64,000 nucleotides of DNA from Streptomyces sp. NBC_00457 (lineage in GTDB: Bacteria > Actinomycetota > Actinomycetes > Streptomycetales > Streptomycetaceae): contig NZ_CP107905.1 of NCBI RefSeq assembly GCF_036014015.1, positions 10,738,566-10,802,565 of the forward strand. Direction: 5' to 3'. Positions 46,970 through 63,313 of this stretch are shown here, in pieces. A program made the translations under genes and the position numbers. Numbering within the stretch: position 1 is the stretch's first letter; every line of letters starts with the position of its first letter. The notes under the pieces are model-generated. The model saw only the letters and a program-made list of their open reading frames with translations, searched no databases and was not told where the DNA came from.

Positions 46970-46997
46970 ATAATAGTGTTTCTCGGGGGATGGTCAA
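46970..46997 (-). promoter_or_regulatory. Regulon promoter P1 (SSB unit)
   Basis: Minus strand: -35 TTGACC (46,992-46,997), 16-bp spacer ending AACAC, -10 TATTAT (46,970-46,975). Best -35 of the set; the upstream 19-bp box is diverged here. Confidence 0.75.
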
Positions 46998-47800
46998 CCC
47001 CCCTGCCGGCACTTACCGCCGCCGGAGAGAGCGGTACGGCGGGTGAGGTGCCGGAAGCGGGCTTTCCACCCGGTCGGCGGCGCTGGGGCCGGCGGCGGGG
47101 TGAGGTTGTCGAACACCGTGGCGTCCTCGATCTCCACCAGCAGCGGCACCGTGCCGTCGGCCCGGACCAGCTGCTCGTCGGTGGTGTCCAGATGAACGGA
47201 GACCCGTACGGCCCCGCGGTCGGCGTCGAGGTAGACGAACACGAGGATGCCCGCGATCTCCATGCAGGGCAGGCCCTCGTCGTCAGGCCCCCGCATCGCG
47301 TGGAACACCGCCGCGCTGTTCGCCTCCGCGCACTCCTCGGCGTCCGAGAGGCTGGGATTTCGGGGCGCGATCACGCAGCGGGAGATGTCCGCGTCGTACA
47401 GCGTGTAGCCCTCGATGTCCTCCCTCGACTCGTAGAACAGGTCCACGGCCGTACGGTCGTCGGCGGGCGGACGGAACGGGACGCCGTCCTCGCCCGCCAC
47501 GTCGTCCCAGGCATTGCGCACGTGCTGCGCCAGCGAGGCAAGGGCGGAAGCCTCGTCAGACCAGAGCGTGACATCGTCGCTGTGCCGGTCCCACTGGCGC
47601 AGCACCCACGCGCGGCCTGTCACCTGCGGGGCGAGGTTCTCGTCGACGGCGAAGCTGAAGCGGCTCAGCCACCCTTCGAGGATGCTGACGGTGTCCGCCC
47701 CCGGCCATTCGCCGGTGCGCTCCTGGAGGCCGTCCATCAGGTCGGCCAGGTCGATGATGGCCCCGCCTGCGGGCGTGGCCGGGTCCGGTTTGATCGGCAT
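46994..47800 (-). CDS. Hypothetical acidic protein
   Basis: A 268-aa soluble acidic protein (ILEGWLSRFSFAVDENLAPQ; VLVFVYLDADRGAVRVSVHL) with a basic Pro-containing tail (APAPPTGWKARFRHLTRRTA). Good GGAAGG ribosome site. No family recognised. Last gene of the transcription unit that starts with the ParB-like gene; its stop overlaps the -35 of promoter P1. Confidence 0.75.
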   Translation of the reverse strand: MPIKPDPATPAGGAIIDLADLMDGLQERTGEWPGADTVSILEGWLSRFSFAVDENLAPQVTGRAWVLRQWDRHSDDVTLWSDEASALASLAQHVRNAWDDVAGEDGVPFRPPADDRTAVDLFYESREDIEGYTLYDADISRCVIAPRNPSLSDAEECAEANSAAVFHAMRGPDDEGLPCMEIAGILVFVYLDADRGAVRVSVHLDTTDEQLVRADGTVPLLVEIEDATVFDNLTPPPAPAPPTGWKARFRHLTRRTALSGGGKCRQGG

Positions 47801-47830
47801 GGCGGTTTCCTTCCGTGTGGAACGGGGCGG

Positions 47831-48442
47831 TCAGGACCCGTCCATCAGGGCGTTCCAGAGGTCCATCAGGTGTTGCTGGTCGGGGGTGAGAGTCGCGGTG
47901 CGCAGCACGCGCTGGCGCAGGACAGGCACGTCGAGGCTGATGCCGGAGGGCACATCGGGCCGCTCGGGCAGCGTGACCAGCTGGTAGTTCCGGGTGTGGA
48001 TCATCCAGGCCTCGTACCGGTCGGCAGGGCTTCCGCTGCGGGCGGTGGGGCCCTCGCCCGTCGTGCGCGACAGGCAGAGGCAGGAGGGATCGGTGCAGGG
48101 CCGTCCGGCGGGGTGGCTGGCCAGGACCGGGCTGCGGCGGTAGTGCGTGGCGGTGCCGTTCAGCATCGGGCAGTGGTCGGCGGTGTACGGCAGGCACTCG
48201 GGGTGCAGTGCCGGTTCCGGGGAGCGTCCCTTGAGGACGTCGGCCGGGCGGACGAGCAGGAAGCACCGTTCGTCCAGCGGGTGTTCGCAGATCTGGCACA
48301 GGCGGCGCCGGAAGGCGTTGATGGTCTTGTCGGCGTCGAGGACACCGAAGGCCGCGTGGCCGTCGTTGATCAGGGTCACGTACGGCACCACCAGCCCGCC
48401 CGCCAGCGGCCGGTGGGCACAGCGTTGGGGTATCGCGTGCAT
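47831..48442 (-). CDS. Hypothetical protein with zinc-finger-like Cys/His set
   Basis: A 203-aa protein. RRLCQICEHPLDERCFLLVR and LHPECLPYTADHCPMLN resemble a treble-clef zinc site; CTDPSCLCLS forms a second Cys group. C-terminal helical tail (RQRVLRTATLTPDQQHLMDL). Fits small nucleic-acid-binding or phage-like HNH-adjacent proteins, but no catalytic residues were seen. GAAGGA ribosome site. Confidence 0.7.
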   Translation of the reverse strand: MHAIPQRCAHRPLAGGLVVPYVTLINDGHAAFGVLDADKTINAFRRRLCQICEHPLDERCFLLVRPADVLKGRSPEPALHPECLPYTADHCPMLNGTATHYRRSPVLASHPAGRPCTDPSCLCLSRTTGEGPTARSGSPADRYEAWMIHTRNYQLVTLPERPDVPSGISLDVPVLRQRVLRTATLTPDQQHLMDLWNALMDGS

Positions 48443-48495
48443 GGGTCAGTTCCTTCGGATCGCGGGAGTGCGCGGCGGGGCCCGGGCGCCCGGCG

Positions 48496-48927
48496 TCAGT
48501 TGCTGGCCGGTGGGGGAGGGTCGGCGGGGCCGCCGGCCAGGAGCGCTTCCCAGTGGGCGTAGCGGCATTCGGTGGCGTCGTGCAGGCGCAGGTGCAGCCA
48601 GCTGAGGTTGTCTCCGGCCCGGATGACGGCCTCGGCCCCGATGGCGGCGGCCCGGGGGTAGATGGTGCCGTCGTCGGGGTCGACCAGGACGACGATCAGT
48701 CCCCGGCGGTGCGGCACGTGGCGGAGCGTGAAGTCGCTGTAGCTGCGGTCGTCCAGGAGCACGAGCGGGGCACGCCGGTACTCCTCGGCGCTGAAAAGGG
48801 GCGACGGCAGATGCAGGCGGGGGACCGGGCACGTCCGCAGGCCGACCGGATCGTCGTCGGTGCTGTCGCTGATGACCAGCACCGGGGCCTGCGGTCCTTC
48901 CCTGGGGGCTAGTGCTGGGGCGGACAT
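48496..48927 (-). CDS. Stand-alone receiver-like domain resembling the N-terminus of Ssd/CpaE proteins
   Basis: About 143 aa with a flavodoxin-like alternation: APVLVISDSTDDDPVGLRTC, RAPLVLLDDRSYSDFTLRHV, RRGLIVVLVDPDDGTIYPRA and IGAEAVIRAGDNLSWLHLRL. This order matches the pseudo-receiver domain in front of the MinD-like ATPase in actinobacterial Ssd/CpaE proteins, here encoded alone. The window's CpaE-like protein (4,877-5,701) lacks this domain. Start at 48,927 is chosen since the preceding 18 codons look non-coding. Confidence 0.6.
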   Translation of the reverse strand: MSAPALAPREGPQAPVLVISDSTDDDPVGLRTCPVPRLHLPSPLFSAEEYRRAPLVLLDDRSYSDFTLRHVPHRRGLIVVLVDPDDGTIYPRAAAIGAEAVIRAGDNLSWLHLRLHDATECRYAHWEALLAGGPADPPPPASN

Positions 48928-49047
48928 GGCGGTGACACATCGCTTTCGTGAATACCGAGACCAGAAAAGGGCCCCGGGCAAAGGGGAGTTGGCGGCCTGC
49001 GGGCGAGGGGCGTCCGGATGCGGGCGCCCCCGCCCGTGGGCGTTCGC

Positions 49048-49380
49048 TCAGCCGAGCGGGAAGAGCACCAGCGCGGGGACGGCGGTGTCGGGGATGCGGT
49101 CCGCGTACAACTCGCGCAGGTCCTCGTCCTCCTTCAGCTCTTCCGGCATCGGGTAGACGTCGCCCAGGCGGTCGGTGTGGGTCGGCGCGTACCGGGAGCG
49201 GGTGTAGTAGGAGAAGGGCGAGAAGAGGTTGCCCTCGGCGTCCTGGGAGAGCACGACGAGCGTGTCTCCGGGCAGGTGCTTCCAGTCTGTCCGGACCAGG
49301 TCGCGCAGCACGGCGAGGGTCACGGGGCTGTCCGGGGCGTCGCTGTCCGGCCCGGGGGAGGGTGCCTGCTGGTCAGTCAT
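49048..49380 (-). CDS. Hypothetical protein
   Basis: A 110-aa acidic protein: disordered N-terminus (MTDQQAPSPGPDSDAPDSPV), then LRDLVRTDWKHLPGDTLVVL, SQDAEGNLFSPFSYYTRSRY and EELKEDEDLRELYADRIPDT. Small AAAGG ribosome site. Not recognised. Confidence 0.7.
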   Translation of the reverse strand: MTDQQAPSPGPDSDAPDSPVTLAVLRDLVRTDWKHLPGDTLVVLSQDAEGNLFSPFSYYTRSRYAPTHTDRLGDVYPMPEELKEDEDLRELYADRIPDTAVPALVLFPLG

Positions 49381-49441
49381 GACGGCCTTTCACGTGCGGG
49401 CCGGGCTGGGAGGGGCCCGGCCGGTTGATCGGCGGGTGGCG

Positions 49442-49469
49442 GGCGCCGCCCCGATGCCGGGGCGGCGCC
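49442..49469 (-). terminator. Hairpin after the 49,481 gene
   Basis: Perfect 12-bp arms (GGCGCCGCCCCG / CGGGGCGGCGCC) around ATGC, 12 bp past the stop codon. Confidence 0.7.
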
Positions 49470-49480
49470 GTCAGGCCCGG

Positions 49481-49858
49481 TCAGTCGTCCTCGATCTCGT
49501 CCAGGCAGGCGACGGGGATGCCGCTGCCCGGGAGCCGGAAGCGCGTCATGTCCTCGGGGATGCGGTACTTGGTGTTGCGCGGGTCGCGGCGCAGGATGCG
49601 GGTGGATTCCTCGTCCAGCAGGAAGCCCGCCCGGGTGCCGGTGCGGTTGCGCTCCTGCACGGTGCCGGTGAGACCGCGCAGCAGGGCCGGGCGCAGCGAC
49701 TCGTTGATGCGGGCCCGGCGTCCGGCCACGAGTCCGGCGAACGCCTCCTTGTCGATCGCGCGGAGCCGCCTCGCGGAGGCCTCCTGGACCTTCGAGACCT
49801 TGATCGCATCCGGCAACTGGCCGATGAAGTCGAGGACTTCGTCCATGGTGACGGTCAT
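49481..49858 (-). CDS. Hypothetical protein
   Basis: A 125-aa protein, basic helical core (QEASARRLRAIDKEAFAGLV; RRARINESLRPALLRGLTGT; RILRRDPRNTKYRIPEDMTR) with an acidic C-terminus (CLDEIEDD). Start at the ATG 49,858. Follows the ParB-like gene in the same unit. Not recognised; could be a DNA-associated accessory factor. Confidence 0.7.
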   Translation of the reverse strand: MTVTMDEVLDFIGQLPDAIKVSKVQEASARRLRAIDKEAFAGLVAGRRARINESLRPALLRGLTGTVQERNRTGTRAGFLLDEESTRILRRDPRNTKYRIPEDMTRFRLPGSGIPVACLDEIEDD

Positions 49859-49894
49859 GCTGGTTCGCCTCTCTGTGACGCGGGGATGGGGGAA

Positions 49895-49922
49895 CCGGCC
49901 GGGCAGGGGCGTGCCCGGCCGG
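49895..49922 (-). terminator. Hairpin after the ParB-like gene
   Basis: Perfect 11-bp arms (CCGGCCGGGCA / TGCCCGGCCGG) around GGGGCG, 19 bp past the stop. Confidence 0.7.
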
Positions 49923-49941
49923 AGCTTGCGGGGAGGTTCGG

Positions 49942-51414
49942 TCAGGCGGCGGGGGCGGGCCGGTGGCGGGCGACCGCCTCGTCCTCGACCTCGGACAGCC
50001 GGTAGCTGCCGTTGTCGTCCTGACCGAGCGCTTCGAGGAGCAGCAGGTAGCGGGCCTGCCGCACGGTGAGGTTCGACCACGTCTTGGGCTCGCGGATGTC
50101 GTACTCGCAGGCGGCGGCGACGTGCGCGAACAGCGCGTTGACGACGCGTGCCTTGGGCAGCTGCACCGCCGTATCCGTCAGGTCCGCGTGCTCGGGCTCC
50201 TTGATGCCCAGGAAGCGGGCGACGGTCTCGGACTCGTGCTTGTCGGTCCAGGAGCTGTAGAAGTACGGGAGGGTGAGCACGACCTCCTGCGCGAAGACGC
50301 GGGCCGCATCCGGCAGGGTCTTCTGGCGCACCAGGCGGGCGACGAAGTCCTGACGGGGACCGGCGGCGGCCTTCCAGGCCCGGTTGCAGGCGATGACCTT
50401 GCGGCGCTCCTCCGCCCTGGCCTCGTCCTCCTCCGTCCTGGGCTTCTTCGGCTGCGGGCGGACCTTGTGACCGTGCGCGGCAGGGTCGGAGCAGTGCCAC
50501 ACGGGCTGGTGCTCGTCATCGAGCCGGGCGCTGTGGCCGGGGCAGTTCCTGTGGTTGTCCTCGGTGAGCGGATTGCCCAGCCCGGTGGTCAGCTCGACCA
50601 GCGGCTTGGACGTGTCCTTCTGCCCCCACCCCGGCTGCCCCAGCAGCGGGATGTCCGCCGTCTTGAGGGCTTCCTCGGCCTTGGTCCGGGCGTCGTCGTC
50701 GGCCTGCTCGGCCTTGAGCAGCGCCATCTCCTGGTCCCAGTGGCCGCGCCCGCCGTTGCCCTCCTCACGGTCGCGCTCCAGCGCGCGCAGCAAACGGCGC
50801 TCCGCGCCGCGCACGTTCTCGACCTCCGCCAGCTGGGCGATCTGCTCCAGGTCCATGCCTCCGGCCGTTGCCCGGCGAAGGGTGGCGTCGTCGAGCTTCT
50901 GCGCCGCCTTGGCCTGCTTGGCGGCGTTCCGGCCGACGCCGAGAGCCCTGGTGGCCCGGCGGCGCTCGACGTCGCTCATGTCGATCAGGGCCAGCTCCTG
51001 CGACTTCAGGATGTCGCGCTCGCTCATCTCCTCGCGGTGCGTGTTCTCGACCAGGGACAGGAACCGGGTCCAGCCGTCCTTGCCAACCAGGTCTTCCCGC
51101 ACGTGCGCCTTGATCCTGCGCACCTGGCGGCCGTCCTGTTCGGCGGTGTCGTTGGCGATCTGCTGTGCCTGCGCGCGCCGCCAGCCCTTGAAAGCGCCGT
51201 ACGTGCCGTCGGGCCGGGGCCGGACACTGATGGCCTCCTCGACACCGATCTCCTTGACGGAGGCGATCAGCTCCTCGTCCGGTTCGGTGTCGGTTTCGCG
51301 GGCGTTCTGCTCGTCACGCACCACCTGCGCCGGGTCGAGCAGGACGATCTGCGGCGCGTCTTCCTCCTCGTGCGTGACGGGTTCGGTGGGCTGGGTCGAG
51401 ACGGCGGTGGCCAT
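49942..51414 (-). CDS. ParB-like (sulfiredoxin-fold) protein
   Basis: A 490-aa protein. The N-terminal ParB/Srx-type domain (about residues 25-130) reads LLDPAQVVRDEQNARETDTE, ELIASVKEIGVEEAISVRPR, YGAFKGWRRAQAQQ (GxRRxxA-like box) and SLVENTHREEMSERD, followed by a KorB-like HTH (VERRRATRALGVGRNAAKQA). The C-terminal half (about 250-490) is unfamiliar, with CPGHSARLDDEHQPVWHCSD as a possible zinc finger. No cognate parA is adjacent. It may be a centromere/partition protein, a transcription regulator of the repeated promoters, or an IbrB-like partner of a PAPS-reductase. Start 51,414 follows GGAGAG. Confidence 0.85.
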   Translation of the reverse strand: MATAVSTQPTEPVTHEEEDAPQIVLLDPAQVVRDEQNARETDTEPDEELIASVKEIGVEEAISVRPRPDGTYGAFKGWRRAQAQQIANDTAEQDGRQVRRIKAHVREDLVGKDGWTRFLSLVENTHREEMSERDILKSQELALIDMSDVERRRATRALGVGRNAAKQAKAAQKLDDATLRRATAGGMDLEQIAQLAEVENVRGAERRLLRALERDREEGNGGRGHWDQEMALLKAEQADDDARTKAEEALKTADIPLLGQPGWGQKDTSKPLVELTTGLGNPLTEDNHRNCPGHSARLDDEHQPVWHCSDPAAHGHKVRPQPKKPRTEEDEARAEERRKVIACNRAWKAAAGPRQDFVARLVRQKTLPDAARVFAQEVVLTLPYFYSSWTDKHESETVARFLGIKEPEHADLTDTAVQLPKARVVNALFAHVAAACEYDIREPKTWSNLTVRQARYLLLLEALGQDDNGSYRLSEVEDEAVARHRPAPAA

Positions 51415-51538: not shown

Positions 51539-51582
51539 ATAATAGTGTCTTTCAGGGTGAGGTGAACCCACCCCTGACCTGC
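51539..51582 (-). promoter_or_regulatory. Regulon promoter P2 (ParB-like unit)
   Basis: -10 TATTAT (51,539-51,544), 16-bp spacer, -35 TTCACC (51,561-51,566), and the 19-bp box at 51,564-51,582 whose plus-strand sequence is GAACCCACCCCTGACCTGC. The box starts 25 bp from the -10, as in five other copies, and ends 4 bp from the preceding gene's stop. Confidence 0.8.
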
Positions 51583-51586
51583 CGCT

Positions 51587-52285
51587 TTACGGCCAGTCGT
51601 GCTCTCGGCGGGGCGGCAGCGGGAAGGTGCGCCGGGGGTCCATGCGCACGCAGCGCTCGCAGTAGGCCGTGACGCGGTTGGCGGTGCACTCGCCCCACTG
51701 GCACTCGAAGCGCTCGCGCGGCCCGCAGATCAGGCACCGCCACAGCCTGATCCCGTGCGCCTCGCACGGCTCGTAGCGCTTGCGCGCGGGCAGCAACTCC
51801 AGGGCGGGGCGGGGGCGTTCGAGGCGGGCGGCGTCGGCGGCCGGGAACGACTCGTCACCGTCCCGTATCCAGCGGGGCGACAGCTGGGCGTACCGCTCGG
51901 GAGTGGTGTAGTACGGCAGACCGGCCGGGCTGAACACCATGGCCAGATGGCCGCCGGAGATCAGCGTCTCCAGTCGGTCATGGCTGAACTCCCCGCGCAG
52001 GGACAGCATTTCGTCCTGGCGCAGGCTCCAGGCGTACCCGTACCGGCGCAGGATCCGGCGCTCGCGGGCGGCCGGGCCCGTCTGGGCGGCGTCGAGCTCC
52101 TCGACGGCTTCGATCGCGGCCGTCGGGTTGGTGGTCAGCTCGTGCACCGCCTCCTCGGCGGCCGCGCGGGTAGCGTGGCTGCTGAGCGCGTACCCGTGGA
52201 GCTGGTCAACGACCTGGTGGCGTCCCTCGTGCTCTGCGGCGGCATACCGGACGGGCCGCTGCGGCTGGGTGCGGCGTCGGGACAT
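51587..52285 (-). CDS. Hypothetical protein with C-terminal zinc finger
   Basis: A 232-aa protein: basic N-terminus, helical middle (LTTNPTAAIEAVEELDAAQT; YGYAWSLRQDEMLSLRGEFS), and a Cys/His-rich end (YEPCEAHGIRLWRCLICGPR; CQWGECTANRVTAYCERCVR) that should hold two zinc ions. ATG at 52,285. Last gene of the P3 unit. Probably nucleic-acid binding. Confidence 0.75.
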   Translation of the reverse strand: MSRRRTQPQRPVRYAAAEHEGRHQVVDQLHGYALSSHATRAAAEEAVHELTTNPTAAIEAVEELDAAQTGPAARERRILRRYGYAWSLRQDEMLSLRGEFSHDRLETLISGGHLAMVFSPAGLPYYTTPERYAQLSPRWIRDGDESFPAADAARLERPRPALELLPARKRYEPCEAHGIRLWRCLICGPRERFECQWGECTANRVTAYCERCVRMDPRRTFPLPPRREHDWP

Positions 52286-52343
52286 GGCGGAACTCCATCT
52301 GCACAAGGGAGGGTTGCGGGACGGGGGCCGGCCGGGGCGGCGG

Positions 52344-52583
52344 TCAGCTCCTGGGCAGCGGCTTGTGGGAGGAGAAGACGTAGTGGCCGAGCTCGCGCAG
52401 CATGCCGGCGGTGTCGTCCACGGCCGCGGGGTTGTGGCCGGTCTGGCGGGTGTACGCCTCGATCTCGCTGTTCCAGGTGAACCCCTGGTCGGCGAGGGAC
52501 TGTTCGGTGGCGGGTGTGAGGTCGTCAGAGGACTGCGGGGCGGCGACGAGTCCGTGAGCGGGGTCGGGTACGACGAGGAACAC
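52344..52583 (-). CDS. Hypothetical small protein
   Basis: A 79-aa protein starting at a GTG with GGAAGGAG four bases upstream: LVVPDPAHGLVAAPQSSDDL, TWNSEIEAYTRQTGHNPAAV, MLRELGHYVFSSHKPLPRS. The longer frame upstream is unlikely. Not recognised. Confidence 0.7.
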   Translation of the reverse strand: MFLVVPDPAHGLVAAPQSSDDLTPATEQSLADQGFTWNSEIEAYTRQTGHNPAAVDDTAGMLRELGHYVFSSHKPLPRS

Positions 52584-52644
52584 CGGGCTCCTTCCGTGTG
52601 GGCCGCCCTGGTCGGGGCGGCCCACGGCCGGGGCGGGCAGCTGG

Positions 52645-52989
52645 TCAGCGGGTGACGGTGACGGTGTAGTCGGCGTCCAGGACGGCGAGCGCGGCACGGA
52701 TGGACGCGCGGGTCTCCGCGCTCGGGACCGAGTAGGGGAAGTCCAGGGCGAGCACCGCGTCGTCCAGCTCGTCGTCGGTCATCGGCAGCGTGTATCCGCT
52801 GCGGTAGAGGGCGACGGCGGTCGCGGTGGCGACACGGACGCGGTTGTAGGCGATGGCTTCCCCGGCCGTGACGTCGGTGCCGAGTGCTTCGCGCGCGGTG
52901 GGCGGCAGTTCCGCGATCCCGGCGGCGAACCGGCGGGCGGGCATGCGCAGACGTGCCGGTCGCAGGGCGCGGCGCAGCGTTCGAAGCAT
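52645..52989 (-). CDS. Hypothetical protein
   Basis: A 114-aa protein: Arg-rich N-terminus (RTLRRALRPARLRMPARRFA) and helical remainder (DDELDDAVLALDFPYSVPSA; IRAALAVLDADYTVTV). ATG preceded by CAGGAG. First gene of the P3 unit, with an 85-nt leader that contains a hairpin. Not recognised. Confidence 0.7.
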   Translation of the reverse strand: MLRTLRRALRPARLRMPARRFAAGIAELPPTAREALGTDVTAGEAIAYNRVRVATATAVALYRSGYTLPMTDDELDDAVLALDFPYSVPSAETRASIRAALAVLDADYTVTVTR

Positions 52990-53075: not shown

Positions 53076-53119
53076 ATAATAGTGTAAGCGGGGAGGGTGT
53101 GAACCCACCCCTGACCTGC
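53076..53119 (-). promoter_or_regulatory. Regulon promoter P3
   Basis: -10 TATTAT (53,076-53,081), 16-bp spacer, -35 TTCACA (53,098-53,103), 19-bp box at 53,101-53,119 identical to P2. Confidence 0.8.
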
Positions 53120-53155: not shown

Positions 53156-53854
53156 TCAGAGCTGCGGTGCGTGCGCGGCCAGCGACTTCGGTGCCGCGCT
53201 GGTGTAGATGCCTTCCAGGCCGGACGGGGCGATCAGGCCCCAGGTGAAGGTGGCGGTGTCGGCGTAGAACTGCCCGCGCCGGGGGTGCGGCGGGGTGAAG
53301 GCGCGCAGGGCGCCGACGCCGTAGACCTCCAGCGTGCCGTCGCGGAACGCGTCGCGCTGCTCCCCGGTCACGTCCGGTCCGTACTTGTTGCACTGCTCGT
53401 CGGCGACGACGGCGAGGACGGGGCTGAGGTCGTCCTCGATGGGGCCGAACATACTGCGCCAGTGGGCGAGGTCGGCCATGGCCTCGGCGCGGCTCGCGCG
53501 GGTGCTGCGGTAGAGCACACGGTCGCGGTGGTCGGCGAACTCGTCCGTGTCGTACAGCCACGCCTCGAACTGATGCTCCGTGTACATCCCGACGCCGTTG
53601 TGGCGGCAGCGCAGGAACCCGAAGGGCTCGCCGTCGACGAGTACAGGGTGGCGCTCCGTGCAGAACTCGCAGGTGACGCCGACGTGGCGCAGGAGGCGTT
53701 GCAGACGGGGGAAGCGGGCGAAGCGGGTGGCGCAGTTGCAGCAGGTGTACACCTCCCAGCGGGAGGGGCTCGCGACCGTGTCGTGGCGGCAACGCGGGCA
53801 CTGGTAGGCCTTGTTGCTGTACCAGTCGATGACCGGCATCGGGTTCCCTTGCAC
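53156..53854 (-). CDS. Hypothetical protein with zinc-ribbon and second Cys/His cluster
   Basis: About 232 aa. N-terminal zinc ribbon (AYQCPRCRHD ... VYTCCNCATR), then CEFCTERHPVLVDGEPFGFL with RCRHNG, then an alpha/beta region with DRVLYRSTRASRAEAMADLA and VLAVVADEQCNKYGPDVTGE. GTG at 53,854 follows CAGGAG; an ATG five codons later follows AAGGGA and is equally possible. Only gene of the P4 unit. Unknown function, likely nucleic-acid related. Confidence 0.7.
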   Translation of the reverse strand: MQGNPMPVIDWYSNKAYQCPRCRHDTVASPSRWEVYTCCNCATRFARFPRLQRLLRHVGVTCEFCTERHPVLVDGEPFGFLRCRHNGVGMYTEHQFEAWLYDTDEFADHRDRVLYRSTRASRAEAMADLAHWRSMFGPIEDDLSPVLAVVADEQCNKYGPDVTGEQRDAFRDGTLEVYGVGALRAFTPPHPRRGQFYADTATFTWGLIAPSGLEGIYTSAAPKSLAAHAPQL

Positions 53855-53948: not shown

Positions 53949-53992
53949 ATAATAGTGTGAGTTGAGTTGGCGTGAACCCCCCTCTGACTTGC
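53949..53992 (-). promoter_or_regulatory. Regulon promoter P4
   Basis: -10 TATTAT (53,949-53,954), 16-bp spacer, -35 TTCACG (53,971-53,976); box at 53,974-53,992 differs from the P2 box at three positions but keeps the 25-bp distance. Confidence 0.75.
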
Positions 53993-54016: not shown

Positions 54017-55309
54017 TCAGTGCCGGTGGGTCGGCGGCGTGGCGTCCGGCCCGAGGTCCGGCGGCACGCAGTAGTCGACGTCGGATTCCGGGGAGACCAG
54101 GCCGCCGGATTCGGCGTCGGTGCAGTAGGCGTCGAAGACCTCGCCCGCGGTGAGGGGTTGCAAGTCTCCTGTGCGCAGTCGCCAGCCGTAGACCTGGTCC
54201 GGGGCGCTCGGGGCGGTGGTCCGCACGACGAGCCCGCCGGGGCTCCCGGTCGCCAGACCGAGGGCGAGGACCGTGGTGAATTCGAGGGCCTCGGCCTCGT
54301 CGAGCTGGCTCGCGCCGTCCGGGTCCGTGTCCGCGTGAAGGACGGCGACCAGGGTTTCGGGTGCCGCCGAGACGCTGCAGACGAGGTGTCGGTGGCCCGG
54401 TCGGGCCGTGTCGAGGATGCGGGCCAGCAGGCTAGAGGACCGGGCGAAGGCCGTTCGACCGATGTCCTCGCCGCAGCAGGTGCAGGCGCCGAGACGGGCC
54501 AGAAGCATGGAGGCGTACTCCCAAGTGGCCTGGCGGACGGCTTCGTCGGCCAGGGCCGGGATCAGGTCGGCCAAAGGCTGGCCGTCGTACGGGAGGGCCG
54601 GGCCCATGGTGGCGAGTTCGGCGGTGAAGCGGGCGCGGCTGGACGGGCTGTCGGGGTCGAGACCGGTGTCGGCGCAGAAGTCGGCGTACTCCTGCGGGTC
54701 GAAGTGAGCGACCGTGGTGTGGGCGCCCTGGGACGCGCGGCTCCTGAGAAGGTCTTCGACCGCTTCCAGGTAGGTCGCGAAGTCGGCGAAGGCGAAGGTG
54801 CGGTAATGCCGCATGGCACGGAAGTCGTGTTCGTCGGTGAGCAGGCCGATCGTGCCGGCGACTTCGCGCCGCAGAACGCGGCGCGTGGTCTGGCGGTCGG
54901 TGTGTGTCCTGTCTCCCGCGCACGATCGAGCAGCGTGGGGCTCGTCCCGGCTGCACTGGGAGGGCTGAGGTGTGTGGGTCACGTGCACGCCTTTCTCGTG
55001 GGCGGACTGAAGGGATTCGTCCTGGGTGTCGGCAGGGGCGGGGCTCCAGTGCATCCCGTCGGCCGCGAGCGAGGCGCCTGCGGGCACGGTCCCCTGAAAG
55101 TGGTGGTCGCCCGGCTCGTCGTCCTCGGCGTGGGCGTCGATCCATTCGTCGGCGGCCTGCTCGGCACCGAGGGCACGGAGCACGTCGGCGAGGGTGTCGG
55201 CTTCGGTGCATCCGAGGCTGGCGGCGACGTCGGACGTGATGACGCTGTTGCACCAGGCGTCGGTGAACGCCTCGGCGACTTCGGACGGGATGCTGACGGT
55301 GTCGGCCAT
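54017..55309 (-). CDS. Hypothetical protein
   Basis: A 430-aa soluble acidic protein. N-terminal helical part (VAEAFTDAWCNSVITSDVAA; LADVLRALGAEQAADEWIDA), a disordered middle, a helical domain (RHYRTFAFADFATYLEAVED) and a C-terminal domain with ARLGACTCCGEDIGR and LVAVLHADTDPDG. Follows a tRNA gene 32 bp upstream in the same unit. No family recognised. Confidence 0.75.
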   Translation of the reverse strand: MADTVSIPSEVAEAFTDAWCNSVITSDVAASLGCTEADTLADVLRALGAEQAADEWIDAHAEDDEPGDHHFQGTVPAGASLAADGMHWSPAPADTQDESLQSAHEKGVHVTHTPQPSQCSRDEPHAARSCAGDRTHTDRQTTRRVLRREVAGTIGLLTDEHDFRAMRHYRTFAFADFATYLEAVEDLLRSRASQGAHTTVAHFDPQEYADFCADTGLDPDSPSSRARFTAELATMGPALPYDGQPLADLIPALADEAVRQATWEYASMLLARLGACTCCGEDIGRTAFARSSSLLARILDTARPGHRHLVCSVSAAPETLVAVLHADTDPDGASQLDEAEALEFTTVLALGLATGSPGGLVVRTTAPSAPDQVYGWRLRTGDLQPLTAGEVFDAYCTDAESGGLVSPESDVDYCVPPDLGPDATPPTHRH

Positions 55310-55340
55310 CGCGGCCTCCAGGGGCGGTCAGGTAGGTGCG

Positions 55341-55409
55341 TGCCTGCGAGGGGATTTGAACCCCTGACCACCCACAAGTGGAGCCGCTCTACCGCTGAGC
55401 TACGCAGGC
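55341..55409 (-). tRNA. Short atypical tRNA, probably His (GTG)
   Basis: Acceptor GCCTGCG pairs perfectly with CGCAGGC, the D-arm (GCTC/GAGC) and T-arm (AGGGG TTCAAAT CCCCT) are normal, but the anticodon arm is compressed: CCAC TTGTGG GTGG, total length only 69 nt. The most natural anticodon is GTG. There is no 3' CCA and the base before position 1 is A, not the G expected for tRNA-His. May be a divergent functional tRNA or a decaying one. Confidence 0.65.
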
Positions 55410-55445
55410 TTGGGGCCGCCGGTGCGGTGGCCGGGTGATGGTGGG

Positions 55446-55877
55446 TCAGCGTCCGGCGATCTCGCGCAGCCGCTTCAAGGCGGTGGGCGCGTCGACGTAC
55501 CAGAACGTCTCGTTGGGCTTCAGGCCGAGCGCCTTGGCGGCAACGTCGCAGATCAGGCGGCGCTCCTCGCCTCGCTCCGCGTAGACGCTGGCCAGCGTCT
55601 CGTACTCGTCACCGTCGTCGTCCGTGCCGGTGACCTCCGTCTGTTCCTCGTCGGGCAGGGACACGAGCGTCCAGCCGGTGAGGCGCGCCGTCCATCCGGC
55701 CGCGCACAGTTGGGAACCGCACGCCGGAGCCTCTTCGGGGGCCAGCCGGAGGGCCTCGGGCAGATATGCCCAGTGGTCCATGCTGAAGACATTGGGCTGC
55801 GCCTCGATGGCGTCCAGGACGGCAGACGCCACGTTGGCGGGCGTCTCGGGTTTCTTGGTGACCTCGGTGTCGGTCAT
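55446..55877 (-). CDS. Hypothetical acidic protein between two tRNAs
   Basis: A 143-aa protein (NVASAVLDAIEAQPNVFSMD; CGSQLCAAGWTARLTGWTLV; ICDVAAKALGLKPNETFWYV). The CGSQLCAAGW segment recalls small proteins common on actinophage and plasmid genomes. ATG at 55,877 preceded by GGAG. Transcribed from P5 with both tRNAs. Confidence 0.75.
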   Translation of the reverse strand: MTDTEVTKKPETPANVASAVLDAIEAQPNVFSMDHWAYLPEALRLAPEEAPACGSQLCAAGWTARLTGWTLVSLPDEEQTEVTGTDDDGDEYETLASVYAERGEERRLICDVAAKALGLKPNETFWYVDAPTALKRLREIAGR

Positions 55878-55909
55878 CACAACTCCAGTCATGTGGAACG
55901 GCGTTGGAG

Positions 55910-55983
55910 TAGTGCTGGCGGGACTCGAACCCACGACCTCAAGACTTATAAGATCCGCGCTCTACCAACTGAGCTACAGCACC
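55910..55983 (-). tRNA. tRNA-Ile, anticodon TAT (reads AUA)
   Basis: A 74-nt cloverleaf: acceptor GGTGCTG with CAGCACT (first pair G-U), D-arm GCTC/GAGC with AGTTGGTA loop, anticodon loop CTTATAA, T-arm GTGGG TTCGAGT CCCGC. The anticodon stem is weak (one mismatch, two G-U pairs). AUA is very rare in high-GC actinomycetes and is normally read by a modified CAU tRNA. Driven by promoter P5. Confidence 0.75.
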
Positions 55984-56116: not shown

Positions 56117-56160
56117 ATAATAGTGTCAATTGGTTTAAGGGGAACCCACCCCTGACCTGC
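56117..56160 (-). promoter_or_regulatory. Regulon promoter P5 (tRNA unit)
   Basis: -10 TATTAT (56,117-56,122), 16-bp spacer, -35 TTCCCC (56,139-56,144), 19-bp box at 56,142-56,160 identical to P2, 5 bp from the preceding stop codon. The nearest downstream genes are tRNA-Ile and 55,446. Confidence 0.8.
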
Positions 56161-56165: not shown

Positions 56166-56771
56166 TTACTCCCGGACCGCCTGGGTGAACGCGGTCAGCA
56201 TGGAAATCACGGAGCTGGGGCGCCCGGACACTTCGGCCTGCGCCCCCTCACCAGAGGGGCCGACGACCACGGTGACGCTGTCGACCTGGACGGGGCCGCG
56301 CTCGTCGGGCGGCCTGGTGTCGTGCTGCCAGATGATCCGGGTGCGCCTGTACTGCTCGTCGACCCGGGCCCCGGGGAGTGCGGCGGCCACGGCTTCGGTG
56401 ACGGCGCGTCGGCTGCTCTCCTCCGCCTCCTGCCGTGCGGCGAGTTCGGCGGCCTGCTGCGCGGCCTCGGCGTGCAAGGGATACAGCCGCCGGGTGATCT
56501 CGCGTGCCACGTGGCGGGCGCTGCTGGCTGTGACTCCGATCGACGGCGCGATCATCTTGGTCTCGTCCGTGGCGTGGATCTTCAGGCGATCGGGGCGGCG
56601 GTCGTCGGGCTGGCACAGGCGCAGGGCGCGGCCCTCGCCGTCGATGATGAGCCGTCCCATGCCGCGTACGTAGCCCGTGAGTTTGGCCGTCCGGCAGTGC
56701 GTACCCAGCTCCCGCGCCACTTCGGCGGCGAAAGCGTCCACCTGCTCCTGCGTAGTCAACTCGCGTGTCAT
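56166..56771 (-). CDS. Hypothetical protein
   Basis: A 201-aa protein: EQVDAFAAEVARELGTHCRT, GRLIIDGEGRALRLCQPDDR, a long Ala/Glu helix (LHAEAAQQAAELAARQEAEE) and SVTVVVGPSGEGAQAEV. The ATG at 56,771 follows AAGGAG. The frame is open further upstream through the previous small gene. Not recognised. Confidence 0.7.
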   Translation of the reverse strand: MTRELTTQEQVDAFAAEVARELGTHCRTAKLTGYVRGMGRLIIDGEGRALRLCQPDDRRPDRLKIHATDETKMIAPSIGVTASSARHVAREITRRLYPLHAEAAQQAAELAARQEAEESSRRAVTEAVAAALPGARVDEQYRRTRIIWQHDTRPPDERGPVQVDSVTVVVGPSGEGAQAEVSGRPSSVISMLTAFTQAVRE

Positions 56772-56781
56772 GGCAGTCTGT

Positions 56782-56981
56782 TCACTCCTTCGGCTGGCTG
56801 GAGGTGGTGCCGGGCGCGTGGTTCCTCGCGCCCTGGTCGCGGAGCTCGGCCTCCCGGCGGGGTCCTCGGCGGTATATCCGGTGTCGCACCCTGGGCGGCA
56901 CAGCTGGCCTGGGGGTGCGCCGCAGGTCTCGGACTGGTCGTCGAAGTCCTCCGGGCGCCACGGGTGCAGCTGGCCGCTCAC
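56782..56981 (-). pseudogene. Small Cys-containing gene with a frameshift
   Basis: A GTG at 56,981 overlaps the upstream stop (GTGA), so translation clearly starts here: SGQLHPWRPEDFDDQSETCG, APPGQLCRPGCDTGYTAED. At the CCCC run that follows, natural-looking sequence continues in the -1 frame (RREAELRDQGARNHAPGTTS to a stop at 56,782), while the original frame runs into the next gene. Either a one-base deletion or programmed slippage. Confidence 0.5.
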
Positions 56982-57688
56982 GCGGGGCTCTCCCGGATGT
57001 GGTCGGCCAGGGCTCGGGCGGACATGACGGGGCTCTGGTAGGGCGGGGTGGCGCGGACGGCGCGCCACAGATTCGAGGGCTGCCACGGGTCGAAGTCGAT
57101 TCCGGGGACGGGCCGGATGGACCACTGGCGGCCGCGGGGGCCGGTGACGGTGTAGGTCAGACGCCGTGGGGTGGCCCGGTGTCCGTTGTCGGCCCAGGAA
57201 AGGCCGGCGGCCGTGAGCACGCTGCCCAGCTCGTTGCAGCGCGACCGGGTGATGTGCTCGAACTCGGCCGGGATCAGGTGGAAGTCGGCCATGTCGTGGC
57301 CCCGCCACTCTTCCTTGTGACCGTCTTCACGGGTGACGACATACACGCAGGCCTGCTGCTGGAGGCGGCGCCCTCCCCAGGTCCAGACCCGCCGGAAGCT
57401 GGTGACCTCCCACACGCCCTCCGGGCTGCGCAGCTGCTCACCCACCCGGAGTGGACGGGGCGGCTGAGTGTGGAAGCTGCGGGGGCCAGGCGTCAGGCCG
57501 TTGTCCTTCAGGTCGGTGCACCCCGAGCACATCCACACCGTCTCGCCGTGAAGCCGGTAGATGGCCCAGCAGTCCGTGTAGCAGGTCGAGCACACGAACC
57601 GGCAGTCCGCAGAGGCGAGGACCGTTGCCGCGTACGTCAGGCGGGGCATGCGGCTGATGACCAGGCCGAAGTGGCGTCCGGCGGACAC
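56978..57688 (-). CDS. Hypothetical zinc-finger-like protein
   Basis: A 236-aa protein with CRFVCSTCYTDCWAIYRLHG and VWMCSGCTDL forming a probable zinc finger at residues about 29-58, then a beta-rich domain (EQLRSPEGVWEVTSFRRVWT; ACVYVVTREDGHKEEWRG) and a helical/WxxR C-terminus (WSIRPVPGIDFDPWQPSNLW). GTG preceded by GGAAGGAG. Unknown. Confidence 0.75.
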   Translation of the reverse strand: MSAGRHFGLVISRMPRLTYAATVLASADCRFVCSTCYTDCWAIYRLHGETVWMCSGCTDLKDNGLTPGPRSFHTQPPRPLRVGEQLRSPEGVWEVTSFRRVWTWGGRRLQQQACVYVVTREDGHKEEWRGHDMADFHLIPAEFEHITRSRCNELGSVLTAAGLSWADNGHRATPRRLTYTVTGPRGRQWSIRPVPGIDFDPWQPSNLWRAVRATPPYQSPVMSARALADHIRESPA

Positions 57689-57740
57689 GGTTTCTCCTTC
57701 CAAGGGGGTGGTGAGCAGCGCGGGCGGCCTGCCGGACGGG

Positions 57741-58112
57741 TCAGGGGGCGGCGGTCCACAGGGGGAGCCCGGTGGTGGTGCGGGCGCTGACGCCCGGGCG
57801 CACAGGAACGTCGCGGTAGTCGGACACCTTCACGTAGCCGCCCCGCTCGGTGTCGAGGCGGACCGGGGCGCCCTCCCATTCCCACTGCTCGATGAGTTCC
57901 GCGGGGAGGTTCTCGACGTCGTCGGCCTCCACCTGTACGGCCCAGGCGGTCAGTTCCTCGCCGTATTCCTGGCGCCACTCCTTCAGGACGGTGAAGAGGT
58001 GGGCGAAGTCGTCGACCAGGGCCAGGGCGCGCGCCTGGTCGGGGGCGGGGGCCTCGGCGTAGGTCGGTGCGTCGGGGCGGGTGCGCTCACCAAGGCTCAT
58101 CAGCCAACGCAT
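57741..58112 (-). CDS. Hypothetical acidic protein
   Basis: A 123-aa protein: LVDDFAHLFTVLKEWRQEYG, VQVEADDVENLPAELIEQWE, GYVKVSDYRDVPVRPGVSAR. A second Met five codons in is possible. Middle gene of the P6 unit. Not recognised. Confidence 0.7.
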   Translation of the reverse strand: MRWLMSLGERTRPDAPTYAEAPAPDQARALALVDDFAHLFTVLKEWRQEYGEELTAWAVQVEADDVENLPAELIEQWEWEGAPVRLDTERGGYVKVSDYRDVPVRPGVSARTTTGLPLWTAAP

Positions 58113-58170
58113 GGTCAGAACATCTCCCTCGTCGGGCTGGCGGTGTCGGTCTGGGGTGCGGGGCGGTGGG

Positions 58171-58413
58171 TCAGGGGCGCCCGGACGGCTCGGGCTTGCG
58201 GTAGCGGTAGAGGAAGCGCGCGGCCCACGTGCGGCTGGCGAAGCCGGGGATGCCGCCGCCGCTGCCGGGGCGGTTGCCGGGATACTCGGCCACCCATGCC
58301 CGGCAGTCCGCGTGGTACCAGGCGACCCCGTAGCAGGTGGCGCGCTCTCGGCGGTCGAGGACGCGGTAGCCGTACGAGCCGGTGTTGGCGGTGAACGTGA
58401 ACTCCTCAGGCAC
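58171..58413 (-). CDS. Hypothetical small protein
   Basis: An 80-aa protein from a GTG with AAGGAG 5 nt upstream: FTFTANTGSYGYRVLDRRER, ATCYGVAWYHADCRAWVAEY, TWAARFLYRYRKPEP. First gene of the P6 unit. Not recognised. Confidence 0.7.
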   Translation of the reverse strand: MPEEFTFTANTGSYGYRVLDRRERATCYGVAWYHADCRAWVAEYPGNRPGSGGGIPGFASRTWAARFLYRYRKPEPSGRP

Positions 58414-58487: not shown

Positions 58488-58531
58488 ATAATAGTGTCTT
58501 TTGGGGTGACGTGAACCCACCCCTGACCTGC
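58488..58531 (-). promoter_or_regulatory. Regulon promoter P6
   Basis: -10 TATTAT (58,488-58,493), 16-bp spacer, -35 TTCACG (58,510-58,515), 19-bp box at 58,513-58,531 identical to P2. Confidence 0.8.
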
Positions 58532-60683: not shown

Positions 60684-60883
60684 GAGGACTCCTTGCATGG
60701 CGGGCGGTGGGCGGTGGGCGCCGGAGGCCGGCCGCACTGCGCCCCTGGGCACAACGGGTGTCCTGGGCGCGCGGGCGGCTGCGCCGACGCATCGTGCTGC
60801 CGCTACGCGGCAGGGGCCGGGGCGGGAGCGCTCGGCGCTCCCTGCGGGGCTGGGGCGCTGCTCCGGGCTCTGGGTCGGTCGGG

Positions 60884-60925
60884 CCCGTGCGGGCCGGGCT
60901 GGGGGAGTTGCCCGGCCCGCACGGG
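60884..60925 (-). terminator. Strong hairpin after the DUF932 gene
   Basis: Perfect 16-bp arms (CCCGTGCGGGCCGGGC / GCCCGGCCCGCACGGG) with a 10-nt loop, 6 bp past the stop. Probably a partial terminator lowering expression of the genes that follow. Confidence 0.8.
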
Positions 60926-60931
60926 GGTCTG

Positions 60932-62107
60932 TCAGCCGTGCGCGGCGGCGGCCGCGAGGGCGGGTACCGCGAGTGCTTCCAGGGCGGCGGCCTGGTCGGC
61001 GTCGGCGAGCGTCTGCGCGGTCGACGTGACGGCCTGCATCACACCCCCGGCCGTCATCTGCCCGCCCCGGACGAAGTGGGCAAGGATCATGTCCTTGGCC
61101 TCGTTGCCGATGCTGAGCGACTTGGTGACGTGCTCGATCGTCTTCGTCGGCTCGTCCAGCGTCTTACCGGCGGCGGCCTCCATCTCGTACACCTTGGCCT
61201 CGACGTACTCCTGTGACAGGAACGTGCGCACGGCGTCGGTGGTCTTGGATGTGATCAGCTCCAGCGTCTTGCGCTGGGTCTGGCCGGACCAGGACACAAC
61301 GCCCTCGTCCTGCTTGCCTCCGAGGTGCACAGCGCGCATGACGTCCTTGGTCTGGGTCAGACCGTTGCGGCAGACCTGGATGACCGCACGCGGGGTGATG
61401 GTGTACGCCCCCGCTCCGACTTCGCTGTTGGTGATGACGAACCCCGCCGAGATCATCGGGAGTTCGTCACCGCTGCGGCCGTCGAACGGGGAGCGGTAGC
61501 CGCGCAGCAGGTTGCGGGCCTGGATCGCGACCGCTTCGGACTCGACGCGCACGTACATGCGGCGGTCGGTGAGGTCGCACCCCGTGATCCGGGTGGGGTG
61601 GCCGGACTTCTGCACCCCGTCCAGGGCGGCCAGCAGCATGTCAAGGTTGTCCATCAGCTTGTAGCTGTCGGACAGCAGCGCGCGGGCCACGCCCTCACCG
61701 GGCATGCCGGGGCCGTTCTCGCCCCGGAACGCGCGGAGCATGAAACGGCGCTCCGGCCCCTCACGAAGCCACGCGTTGACGTTCTCGTCCAGCAGCGGGA
61801 CGTTTTCCGCGCGCATGCGGCGCAGGTACGCCAGCGGGATGCGGAGCTTGTCAGAGATCCCCTCGTCGGCAACGGCGGTGGGCCGGTAGATGCCGTCTAC
61901 GGCCGTCACGCCGCGCGCGCTGAGTTGGGCCTCAACGCCTTCGACGTGCACGTTTCCCTCGCGCATCCGCAGCGCGGACGCGGGGGCGATGACGTCCAGC
62001 TTCCGGCGCTGTCCGTCCTCCAGGATGCTGACCAGGTCGGACAGGTCGGCGTTACGGGCGCTTGTGGGGGCGACGTTCGTAGCGCGCTCGGCGAACTGCT
62101 GAGTCAT
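60932..62107 (-). CDS. DUF932 plasmid/phage protein
   Basis: A 391-aa protein of the DUF932 (phage/plasmid-like) family: YRPTAVADEGISDKLRIPLA, DNLDMLLAALDGVQKSGHPT, RSPFDGRSGDELPMISAGFV, ITNSEVGAGAYTITPRAVIQ and CRNGLTQTKDVMRAVHLG. DUF932 proteins are widespread on plasmids and phages; their biochemical role is unsettled, though anti-restriction or ssDNA roles are suggested by context. ATG at 62,107 with AAAGGGA. First gene of the P7 unit. Confidence 0.88.
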   Translation of the reverse strand: MTQQFAERATNVAPTSARNADLSDLVSILEDGQRRKLDVIAPASALRMREGNVHVEGVEAQLSARGVTAVDGIYRPTAVADEGISDKLRIPLAYLRRMRAENVPLLDENVNAWLREGPERRFMLRAFRGENGPGMPGEGVARALLSDSYKLMDNLDMLLAALDGVQKSGHPTRITGCDLTDRRMYVRVESEAVAIQARNLLRGYRSPFDGRSGDELPMISAGFVITNSEVGAGAYTITPRAVIQVCRNGLTQTKDVMRAVHLGGKQDEGVVSWSGQTQRKTLELITSKTTDAVRTFLSQEYVEAKVYEMEAAAGKTLDEPTKTIEHVTKSLSIGNEAKDMILAHFVRGGQMTAGGVMQAVTSTAQTLADADQAAALEALAVPALAAAAAHG

Positions 62108-62140
62108 GCGGTGTTCCCTTTCGCTGTTGGTCTCTGCGGG

Positions 62141-62167
62141 TCGGAGGGCGGGGCCACCGCCCCCCGA
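62141..62167 (-). promoter_or_regulatory. Leader hairpin of the DUF932 unit
   Basis: 11-bp arms (TCGGAGGGCGG / CCGCCCCCCGA, one mismatch) with a GGCCA loop in the 5' leader. Confidence 0.6.
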
Positions 62168-62176
62168 ACAACTGCA

Positions 62177-62220
62177 ATAATAGTGTGTTTTAGGGGTGAG
62201 TGAACCCACCCCTGACCTGC
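62177..62220 (-). promoter_or_regulatory. Regulon promoter P7 (DUF932 unit)
   Basis: -10 TATTAT (62,177-62,182), 16-bp spacer, -35 TTCACT (62,199-62,204), 19-bp box at 62,202-62,220 identical to P2 and 4 bp from the preceding stop. Confidence 0.8.
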
Positions 62221-62224
62221 ACAC

Positions 62225-62788
62225 TTAGACCATCGGCGCGCGGAACTCGGGAAGCGGCGTCAGGCTCTGCCGTCGTACGTTCGTGACAGCGGGCACCGGC
62301 ATGGCGCCGATCACCTTGCACAGGTCGTAGCGGACGGTGTGAGCCGCTCCCACCGGTCCGGCCTGCGCCTTGATCGCCTGTACCCAGTAGAGGCCGTGAC
62401 GCCGTGTCAGGCTCCCGTGATACCTGACCTTCTGCCACAGGACCGGTCCGGCGTCCTGTGGGTCAAGGATCTGAGCTACTGAGAGCGCAAGCTGATTCGC
62501 CACCCGCTCAGACAGCAGCAGCTCCATGAACGCGCGGTCAACCGTCGCCCGGTCGACCGGCACATCGGCCATGGCGGGGCCGGTGTGGCCGGTGCGCACA
62601 CCCATCGCCCAACCCAACTCGAAGAACGACCCGACCACGTCCAGCTGTTCGGGAGACACCCTCAGAGCGTCCGGGTCCCTCTCGCTGCGCGCCATCTCCC
62701 GCAGCGCGTAACGGGCCTGCTCCTTCTCGGCGTCCGTGAGCGGGGCTCCGGCTTCCCGGGCCTGCTCTGCAATCCGCGTGTTCTCCAT
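62225..62788 (-). CDS. Hypothetical protein
   Basis: A 187-aa soluble protein: EKEQARYALREMARSERDPD, VVGSFFELGWAMGVRTGHTG, MELLLSERVANQLALSVAQI, WQKVRYHGSLTRRHGLYWVQ. ATG preceded by GGAAGGGA. Second gene of the P8 unit. Not recognised. Confidence 0.75.
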   Translation of the reverse strand: MENTRIAEQAREAGAPLTDAEKEQARYALREMARSERDPDALRVSPEQLDVVGSFFELGWAMGVRTGHTGPAMADVPVDRATVDRAFMELLLSERVANQLALSVAQILDPQDAGPVLWQKVRYHGSLTRRHGLYWVQAIKAQAGPVGAAHTVRYDLCKVIGAMPVPAVTNVRRQSLTPLPEFRAPMV

Positions 62789-62853
62789 GGTCCCTTCCTC
62801 TTTCCTTGATGCCGGGTGGAAGGGGGCGCCCCAACCGGGCGCCCCCGTGCGGA

Positions 62854-63225
62854 TTACTTCAGGAATCCGTTCGACCGGAGGAATTCGGCCGTGATGTGCG
62901 CGATTCCGTGGGGCTTGTAGATCTGCGGGAATCGCCGCAACTCAACTTCCATGCGCCCCGACTCGTCCGGGTCGATGAATTCCTGAACCAGGCGGTACGG
63001 CTCCTCACCCGTCGGCATTTCCAGCACGACCGGACCGGCGGCCTTGGTCTCGAACCGAATTCCGGTGTAATTCCGGTCGCAGTTGTGCACGATCGTCACT
63101 CCTGCTCGCGAGCACAGCAGGGGCAGGAAGTTAGCGATCGTGCGGGCCTGCACTGCAAGCCCAGTCATGGGCGCGTCTGCGCCTCGCACCCCGCGCACGA
63201 TCCCGTCAGTGATCGTCAGTTCCAC
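62854..63225 (-). CDS. Hypothetical protein at the start of the gene array
   Basis: A 123-aa protein from a GTG with GGGGAAAG just upstream: VELTITDGIVRGVRGADAPM, ARTIANFLPLLCSRAGVTIV, PTGEEPYRLVQEFIDPDESG and IAHITAEFLRSNGFLK. Longer open frames upstream run through the promoter and iterons and are not coding. First gene of the P8 unit. Not recognised. Confidence 0.7.
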   Translation of the reverse strand: MELTITDGIVRGVRGADAPMTGLAVQARTIANFLPLLCSRAGVTIVHNCDRNYTGIRFETKAAGPVVLEMPTGEEPYRLVQEFIDPDESGRMEVELRRFPQIYKPHGIAHITAEFLRSNGFLK

Positions 63226-63284
63226 GTCTTTCCCCTTCGTTGGTCCCTTGCGGTTCCCGGGGGTCGCCTCCCCCAGGACTTCAA

Positions 63285-63313
63285 ATAATAGTGTCTCTTT
63301 CGCTCGGATGGAA
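63285..63313 (-). promoter_or_regulatory. Regulon promoter P8
   Basis: -10 TATTAT (63,285-63,290) in the invariant ACACTATTAT, about 17-bp spacer, -35 TTCCAT (63,308-63,313). The 19-bp box is replaced by the iteron array. Confidence 0.65.

What the first reader, a model, noticed from the sequence alone, without database searches (positions are those of the whole stretch)
46970..63313. Eight near-identical promoters define an element-specific regulon
Seen: the 10-mer ACACTATTAT (minus strand) occurs upstream of eight gene groups at 46,970, 51,539, 53,076, 53,949, 56,117, 58,488, 62,177 and 63,285. In six copies a 19-bp box (plus-strand GAACCCACCCCTGACCTGC; one copy with three changes) starts exactly 25 bp from the -10, overlapping the -35 and ending 4-36 bp from the preceding stop. 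The spacing is invariant while flanks vary, which means selection. Inference: a plasmid-encoded regulator or alternative use of a host sigma factor switches SSB, ParB-like, DUF932, tRNAs and about 20 unknown genes together, perhaps on entry into a new host. The 49,942 ParB-like or 28,309 winged-helix proteins are candidate regulators.
Basis: partly seen in the sequence, partly recalled or inferred. Interest (0 to 1): 0.82.

Follow-up and report, generated by a model that had tools for sequence, protein, structure and literature searches.

The report
Shared promoters at linear DNA ends
The last 17,000 bases of this Streptomyces linear DNA hold about two dozen genes read inward from the tip, all behind eight near-identical promoters; related tips carry the same layout with their own promoter sequence, which suggests one switch for genes used when the DNA end enters a new cell.

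Summary
In detail: eight copies of the 10-mer and six boxes, essentially none expected by chance. The setting was missed. The window ends at what looks like a Streptomyces telomere; the block (46.4-63.3 kb) is the terminal 17 kb, read wholly inward. The same block sits at ends of other linear plasmids and apparently some chromosomes. In the records searched, the box plus -10 composite lies near ends only (46 of 46 sites in 15 genomes picked for a hit; 4 of 295 sampled Streptomyces genomes positive; no reversed-pattern hits). Related replicons carry other promoter classes in the same layout. This suggests a replicon-encoded factor that co-diverges with its site. Boxed promoters have a weak -35 (TTC); box-less ssb promoters mostly have TTG, which hints at activation. 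The telomere-proximal 123-aa protein, and SSB, track class best. Folding gives no sign of Frpo-like single-strand promoters. Best reading: establishment ("leading") regulon of a telomere-ended conjugative replicon. Regulator, timing and end-first entry remain inference.

The parts
63285..63294 (-). promoter 1 (-10 core ACACTATTAT), no box; precedes the two telomere-proximal genes
63318..63385 (.). 12-bp direct repeats (GCGCAAC core, 5.6 copies) just upstream of promoter 1
62854..63225 (-). first gene from the telomere, 123 aa (called h123t here), best current candidate for the class-specific factor
   Evidence: model
62225..62788 (-). second gene, 187 aa, unknown
62177..62220 (-). promoter 2: box (62202-62220) plus -10
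60932..62107 (-). DUF932-type protein (PHROG 1362; relatives annotated DUF932), 391 aa
58547..60683 (-). four unknown genes of the promoter-2 group (162, 159, 65 and 270 aa)
58488..58531 (-). promoter 3: box plus -10
56166..58413 (-). four unknown genes of the promoter-3 group (80, 123, 236 and 201 aa)
56117..56160 (-). promoter 4: box plus -10
55909..55983 (-). tRNA-Ile (anticodon TAT)
55446..55877 (-). 143-aa unknown protein of the promoter-4 group
55340..55409 (-). tRNA-Lys (anticodon CTT)
54017..55309 (-). 430-aa unknown protein of the promoter-4 group
53949..53992 (-). promoter 5: box with 3 changes plus -10
53156..53854 (-). 232-aa unknown protein behind promoter 5
53076..53119 (-). promoter 6: box plus -10
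51587..52989 (-). three unknown genes of the promoter-6 group (114, 79 and 232 aa)
51539..51582 (-). promoter 7: box plus -10
49942..51414 (-). ParB-like protein, 490 aa; N-terminal part like ParB, Noc and KorB
46994..49858 (-). five unknown genes of the promoter-7 group
46970..46979 (-). promoter 8: consensus-like -35 TTGACC, no box, short leader
46482..46949 (-). single-stranded DNA-binding protein, 155 aa
63610..64000 (.). presumed telomere: matches the extreme ends of five other Streptomyces plasmid records
   Evidence: hits H16-H20

Best explanation
This is the terminal establishment regulon of a conjugative-type linear Streptomyces replicon. Shown: the block lies at a replicon end and reads wholly inward. 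Shown: its gene groups share one promoter type (box, weak -35 TTCAC, 16 bp, TATTAT) found, in the records searched, only near such ends. Shown: related replicons carry other promoter classes in the same layout. Inferred: the host's primary RNA polymerase reads these promoters with the help of a replicon-encoded factor that binds the box at the -35. Inferred: the factor more likely activates than represses (about 60 to 40), because boxed promoters lack the consensus -35 that most box-less ssb promoters have. Inferred: the genes act when the DNA end enters a recipient, as in plasmid leading regions. The telomere-proximal 123-aa protein is the best current candidate for the factor.
For: Replicon end. 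Same block at other ends. ParB-like homologues in plasmid records: of the 24 best hits (one per record) at 34% identity or more, 21 lie within 20 kb of a record end, all 21 inward (2.3 expected); 15 of 15 at 50% or more. Composite near ends: 46 of 46 sites in 15 genomes, none further than 15.2 kb from the contig end behind it; 26 of 26 sites in the 7 positive of 10 plasmid records; 4 of 295 Streptomyces genomes positive; reversed control 0 in all. One of these has it mirrored on a contig of a 9.6-Mb genome. Other classes. Gene content (SSB, ParB-like, DUF932-type, tRNAs; DprA-like gene next door; T4SS-type genes at 1.6-27.6 kb). Third base of the -35 C or T in 98% of 80 boxed promoters against G in 6 of 7 class-1 ssb promoters. 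The 123-aa protein tracks class and is found in the 6 class-1 plasmid records whose end is assembled.
Confidence: 0.55

Rival explanations
1. No special regulator: a strong host promoter cassette has been copied and kept uniform within each replicon by gene conversion, and the classes are just lineage signatures.
For: No regulator is identified; the layout is of the host primary-sigma type (recalled); leaders also share 5' hairpins, which fits copying of a whole cassette.
Against: The box stays fixed while the spacer diverges over 29 loci. L009 and L012 share proteins 77-91% identical (h114, OmpA-n, h268, h270, h162) yet their blocks use different promoter classes. Boxed promoters lack the consensus -35.
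Confidence: 0.22
2. The ParB-like protein is a KorB-type repressor of the block.
For: Its N-terminal part resembles ParB, Noc and KorB, it has a region that aligns like a ParB-type HTH (my reading), and it sits inside the block.
Against: Its HTH does not track class: L012 and L041 share class 2 but only 0.48 HTH identity, while L041 and the window share 0.63. Neither class 1 nor class 2 is a split in its tree. NZ_CP107763 has class-1 promoters and no homologue.
Confidence: 0.07
3. A host regulator of Streptomyces binds the box.
For: The -35 part GGTTCAC resembles PHO-box units (recalled, not tested).
Against: Only 4 of 295 Streptomyces genomes hold an exact composite site, and replicons of the same genus use unrelated boxes in the same kind of block.
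Confidence: 0.07
4. They are Frpo-like single-strand promoters that fold on entering ssDNA.
For: Frpo-type promoters recur in plasmid leading regions, one right upstream of an SSB gene (passages of PMC11541004).
Against: In folded DNA of both strands the mean pairing of the -10 is 0.11-0.39 at all 8 sites and that of the -35 0.06-0.56, with 3 of 16 values at 0.50 or more (no shuffled control was run). If the 5' protein-bound end enters first, the entering strand is the coding strand, not the template.
Confidence: 0.04
5. The block is an early region of a phage or phage-plasmid.
For: DUF932-type relatives occur in 225 phage records.
Against: The exact composite is not in IMG/VR contigs, conjugation-type genes lie on the same window and the block sits at replicon ends.
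Confidence: 0.03

Closest known systems
Leading region of F-type conjugative plasmids with Frpo promoters (PMC11541004, passages seen)
   Same: SSB and many unknown genes in one orientation at the end thought to enter first, behind recurring related promoters; a ParB-type gene there is recalled.
   Different: Here the site is a replicon end, oriT was not sought, the promoters do not fold as single strands, and each replicon family has its own box.
KorB regulon of plasmid RK2 (recalled; KorB structures listed)
   Same: A ParB-family protein encoded among co-regulated plasmid genes.
   Different: The ParB-like protein does not follow the promoter class and is missing from one class-1 plasmid record.
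T4 middle promoters with MotA box, sigma appropriation (PMC6755090, start of abstract in the listing)
   Same: A short box takes the place of the -35 at a fixed distance from a good -10 (box detail recalled).
Immunity-group operators (stoperators) of mycobacteriophages (recalled)
   Same: Many near-identical sites per genome whose sequence differs between related genomes.
   Different: These are promoters with a fixed -10, not scattered repressor sites.

Membership tests
Leading (establishment) region of conjugative plasmids | Typical genes: SSB and anti-restriction, anti-CRISPR or anti-SOS functions | tested here: inconclusive
   SSB present, with ParB-like and DUF932-type proteins; no PADLOC match in the 10 of 24 proteins tested
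Leading (establishment) region of conjugative plasmids | One orientation at the end of the element | tested here: met
   At the replicon end and wholly inward in the window; inward motif hits only in the window and 19 related loci (motif chosen on that strand)
Leading (establishment) region of conjugative plasmids | Adjacent to oriT and first to enter | not tested
   oriT was not searched; entry order needs experiment
Frpo single-strand promoters | -35 and -10 double-stranded in folded single-strand DNA | tested here: not met
   8 sites, both strands
KorB/ParB-controlled regulon | ParB N-terminal domain with HTH | tested here: met
   Pfam ParB_N below its cut-off
KorB/ParB-controlled regulon | Protein present wherever its operators are, and HTH diverging with them | tested here: not met
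   a copy on the host chromosome was not excluded
MotA/AsiA sigma appropriation | MotA-type double-wing DNA-binding domain | tested here: inconclusive
MotA/AsiA sigma appropriation | Anti-sigma partner of AsiA type | not tested
   not searched

The most novel reading that the evidence does not exclude
Linear Streptomyces replicons, chromosomes included, carry a telomere-proximal invasion regulon. The tip enters a recipient first. The first gene behind the telomere encodes a class-specific factor that redirects the host's primary polymerase to box promoters lacking a consensus -35. The box classes behave like phage immunity groups between competing linear replicons.
Probability: 0.2. Interest if true: 0.85.

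Novelty: new variant of a known kind. Interest (0 to 1): 0.7.

Why it matters
How Streptomyces linear plasmids and chromosomes transfer, and whether their ends enter first, is an old open question (recalled). A terminal, inward, coordinately controlled gene block is what an end-first model would predict. It gives named promoters and genes with which to test the idea. The class system offers pairs of promoter and factor candidates for finding a new regulator and for exclusion between replicons. Most genes in the block have no known domain and are candidates for counter-defence functions.

Tried and rejected
Rejected: ParB as class-specific regulator; the 28,309 winged-helix gene; Frpo-like folding; phage origin. 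PHO-box-like host control was considered from memory and rejected on distribution.

Dropped rows: of 87 promoter rows I used 80. I left out the one from a Clostridiales bin (L034) and six whose box is shifted by one base. One search also returned one stretch from an actinobacterial bin (L027) that is likely chance and did not pass the box filter. The words for other promoter classes were sought only on the inward strand of the first 20 kb, so outward promoters of another type would be missed. In one search the L048 count holds two double hits.

Full report
Observation. Set against gene ends, each box lies 4-36 bp from the preceding stop. The copies at 46,970 and 63,285 have no box. All 24 ORFs I called in the block, and both tRNAs, lie downstream of one of the eight promoters in the same direction.

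Setting. The last 390 bases of the window match the extreme ends of five Streptomyces plasmid records, to within one base of the record end (H16-H20; H19 ends at 103,061 of 103,061). So the window very likely ends at a telomere and the block is the terminal 17 kb. The window's own ParB-like protein is listed on a 10.8-Mb contig, so the replicon may be a chromosome with a plasmid-type end; I cannot name it. Genes of secretion or T4SS type (AAA_10/TraC-like, TcpC, T2SSE, T2SSF) lie at 1.6-27.6 kb.

Distribution. The same kind of block lies at the ends of other plasmid records, 19 of which I fetched in part; 18 of these are labelled linear and one (NZ_CP107769) circular, so its end is arbitrary. 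For the ParB-like protein, 21 of 24 best tblastn hits at 34% identity or more lie within 20 kb of a record end and all 21 point inward, against 2.3 expected; over all 42 records it is 28 of 42. The three misses at the 34% level are partial matches (22-58% of the query). For DUF932 the figure is 8 of 8 at 60% identity, but only 10 of 31 over all hits: distant relatives are not terminal. The composite box plus -10 (up to 2 mismatches) gave 26 sites in 7 of 10 whole plasmid records, all within 17 kb of an end and inward. With up to 1 mismatch it gave 46 sites in 15 Streptomyces genomes, on 16 contigs. Each is at most 15.2 kb from the contig end behind it; 41 of 46 are nearer to that end than to the other, the other five being on two contigs of 15.9 and 23.4 kb (lengths). 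These are draft contig ends, not proven telomeres, and the 15 genomes were chosen because they had a hit. In a sample of 295 genomes of the genus, 4 were positive, three of them among the 15; the fourth has mirrored sites at 9.7 kb and at 9,633 kb on one contig of a 9.6-Mb genome. Reversed-pattern controls were 0 throughout.

Anatomy. Over 80 promoters from 29 loci (87 rows less 7, see Tried and rejected) the conserved unit spans an A-rich patch, GCAGGTCAGGGGTGGGTTCAC, a C-rich spacer, ACACTATTAT and about 7 bases beyond. The third base of the -35 is C or T in 98% of these, but G in 6 of 7 class-1 ssb promoters, which have no box: five TTGAC, one TTGCC (L006); the seventh, L048, has TTAAC. A weak inverted repeat lies around the -35: mean longest stem 4.89 against 4.60 (sd 0.10) with spacers swapped between promoters and 4.04 (sd 0.11) with spacers shuffled. 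It is strong at many DUF932 promoters and in L040. Leaders fold more stably than control stretches 400 bases on: mean z -1.10 against -0.43, with 43 of 97 and 25 of 97 below -1. Upstream of the first promoter lie 12-bp repeats.

Classes. Three related plasmids (L012, L013, L015) carry a different unit: GTATTATGGAAC as the -10 part and, at the promoters before the DUF932-annotated gene and parB, TTGCCCCAC at the -35 with a more or less matching GTGGGGCA upstream; their first-gene promoters (and the ssb promoters of L012 and L015) lack that repeat. L041 has this class too. L039, L040, L042, L043, L045, L046 and L047 each show their own repeated word; L044 showed none. The class-2 unit, tested afterwards on 246 genomes, gave 7 sites in 4 genomes: five lie within 10 kb of a contig start and point away from it, and two are mirrored at 94.7 kb and 10,280 kb on one contig of a 10.4-Mb genome, so not near the tip. 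Proteins h114, OmpA-n and h270 are 82-91% identical between class-1 L009 and class-2 L012, so promoter class and gene ancestry are uncoupled. This points to a trans-acting factor specific to the replicon.

Which factor. In trees of seven families, class 1 and class 2 both form splits for h123t (support 0.63 and 0.78) and SSB (0.99 for class 2); for the 187-aa protein only class 2 does; for ParB, the 125-aa and the 268-aa family neither does. DUF932 has no class-2 member found by BLAST, so it is not informative. NZ_CP107763 has class-1 promoters without a ParB homologue and without a credible SSB. h123t is present in 6 of 7 class-1 records; the seventh, CP118028, starts inside DUF932, so its end is not assembled. 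h123t is also present in the four records of other classes, so its sequence, not its presence, follows class. The ParB-like model (mean pLDDT 81.5) matches ParB, Noc and KorB. The h123t model (pLDDT 90) has no clear relative.

Mechanism. I think the host's main polymerase reads these promoters with the help of a replicon-encoded factor at the box. The missing consensus -35 at boxed promoters favours activation; the inverted repeats allow repression. The role on entry rests on gene content and place, by analogy with leading regions (PMC11541004, passages). DNA folding speaks against single-strand promoters (no shuffled control).

Literature. The listings of searches of open-access papers showed me no report of this promoter system. 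I saw passages of PMC11541004, PMC12803027 and PMC13245405, and of other papers only the listings. Most subscription papers are not in that library.

Noticed in passing
window 55340-55983: tRNA-Lys (CTT) and tRNA-Ile (TAT) inside the block; of 20 related terminal loci scanned only L043 has tRNAs, Ile (TAT) and Leu (TAA). Might counter tRNA-cutting defences or serve rare codons.
   Followed up: partly
window 63318-63385: 12-bp direct repeats before the first promoter; repeats of other sequence at 24-bp spacing also precede the first promoter in L012 and L015.
   Followed up: partly
L046 (NZ_CP107769, labelled circular): Ten near-identical promoters (CTGGTAATGTTGT) and 17 copies of CTCGAAACCC in 18 kb.
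   Followed up: no
L047 (Kitasatospora NZ_CP108410): Six promoters with TTCTCTTGTTGG-type cores and 12 copies of CCCTTCGAA in 20 kb.
   Followed up: no
L049 24535-33827 (NZ_CP109573): A type III CRISPR module on a 57-kb class-1 plasmid (annotation).
   Followed up: no
window 45230-46348: DprA-like protein just past ssb, with relatives in several of the terminal loci.
   Followed up: no
CP075613 and NZ_CP108307: The ParB-like gene gives two separate matches in each of these records, as if broken.
   Followed up: no
window 46970-63294: 5' hairpins follow many promoters in several classes, often with a GGGGTGGCACCCC-like core.
   Followed up: partly
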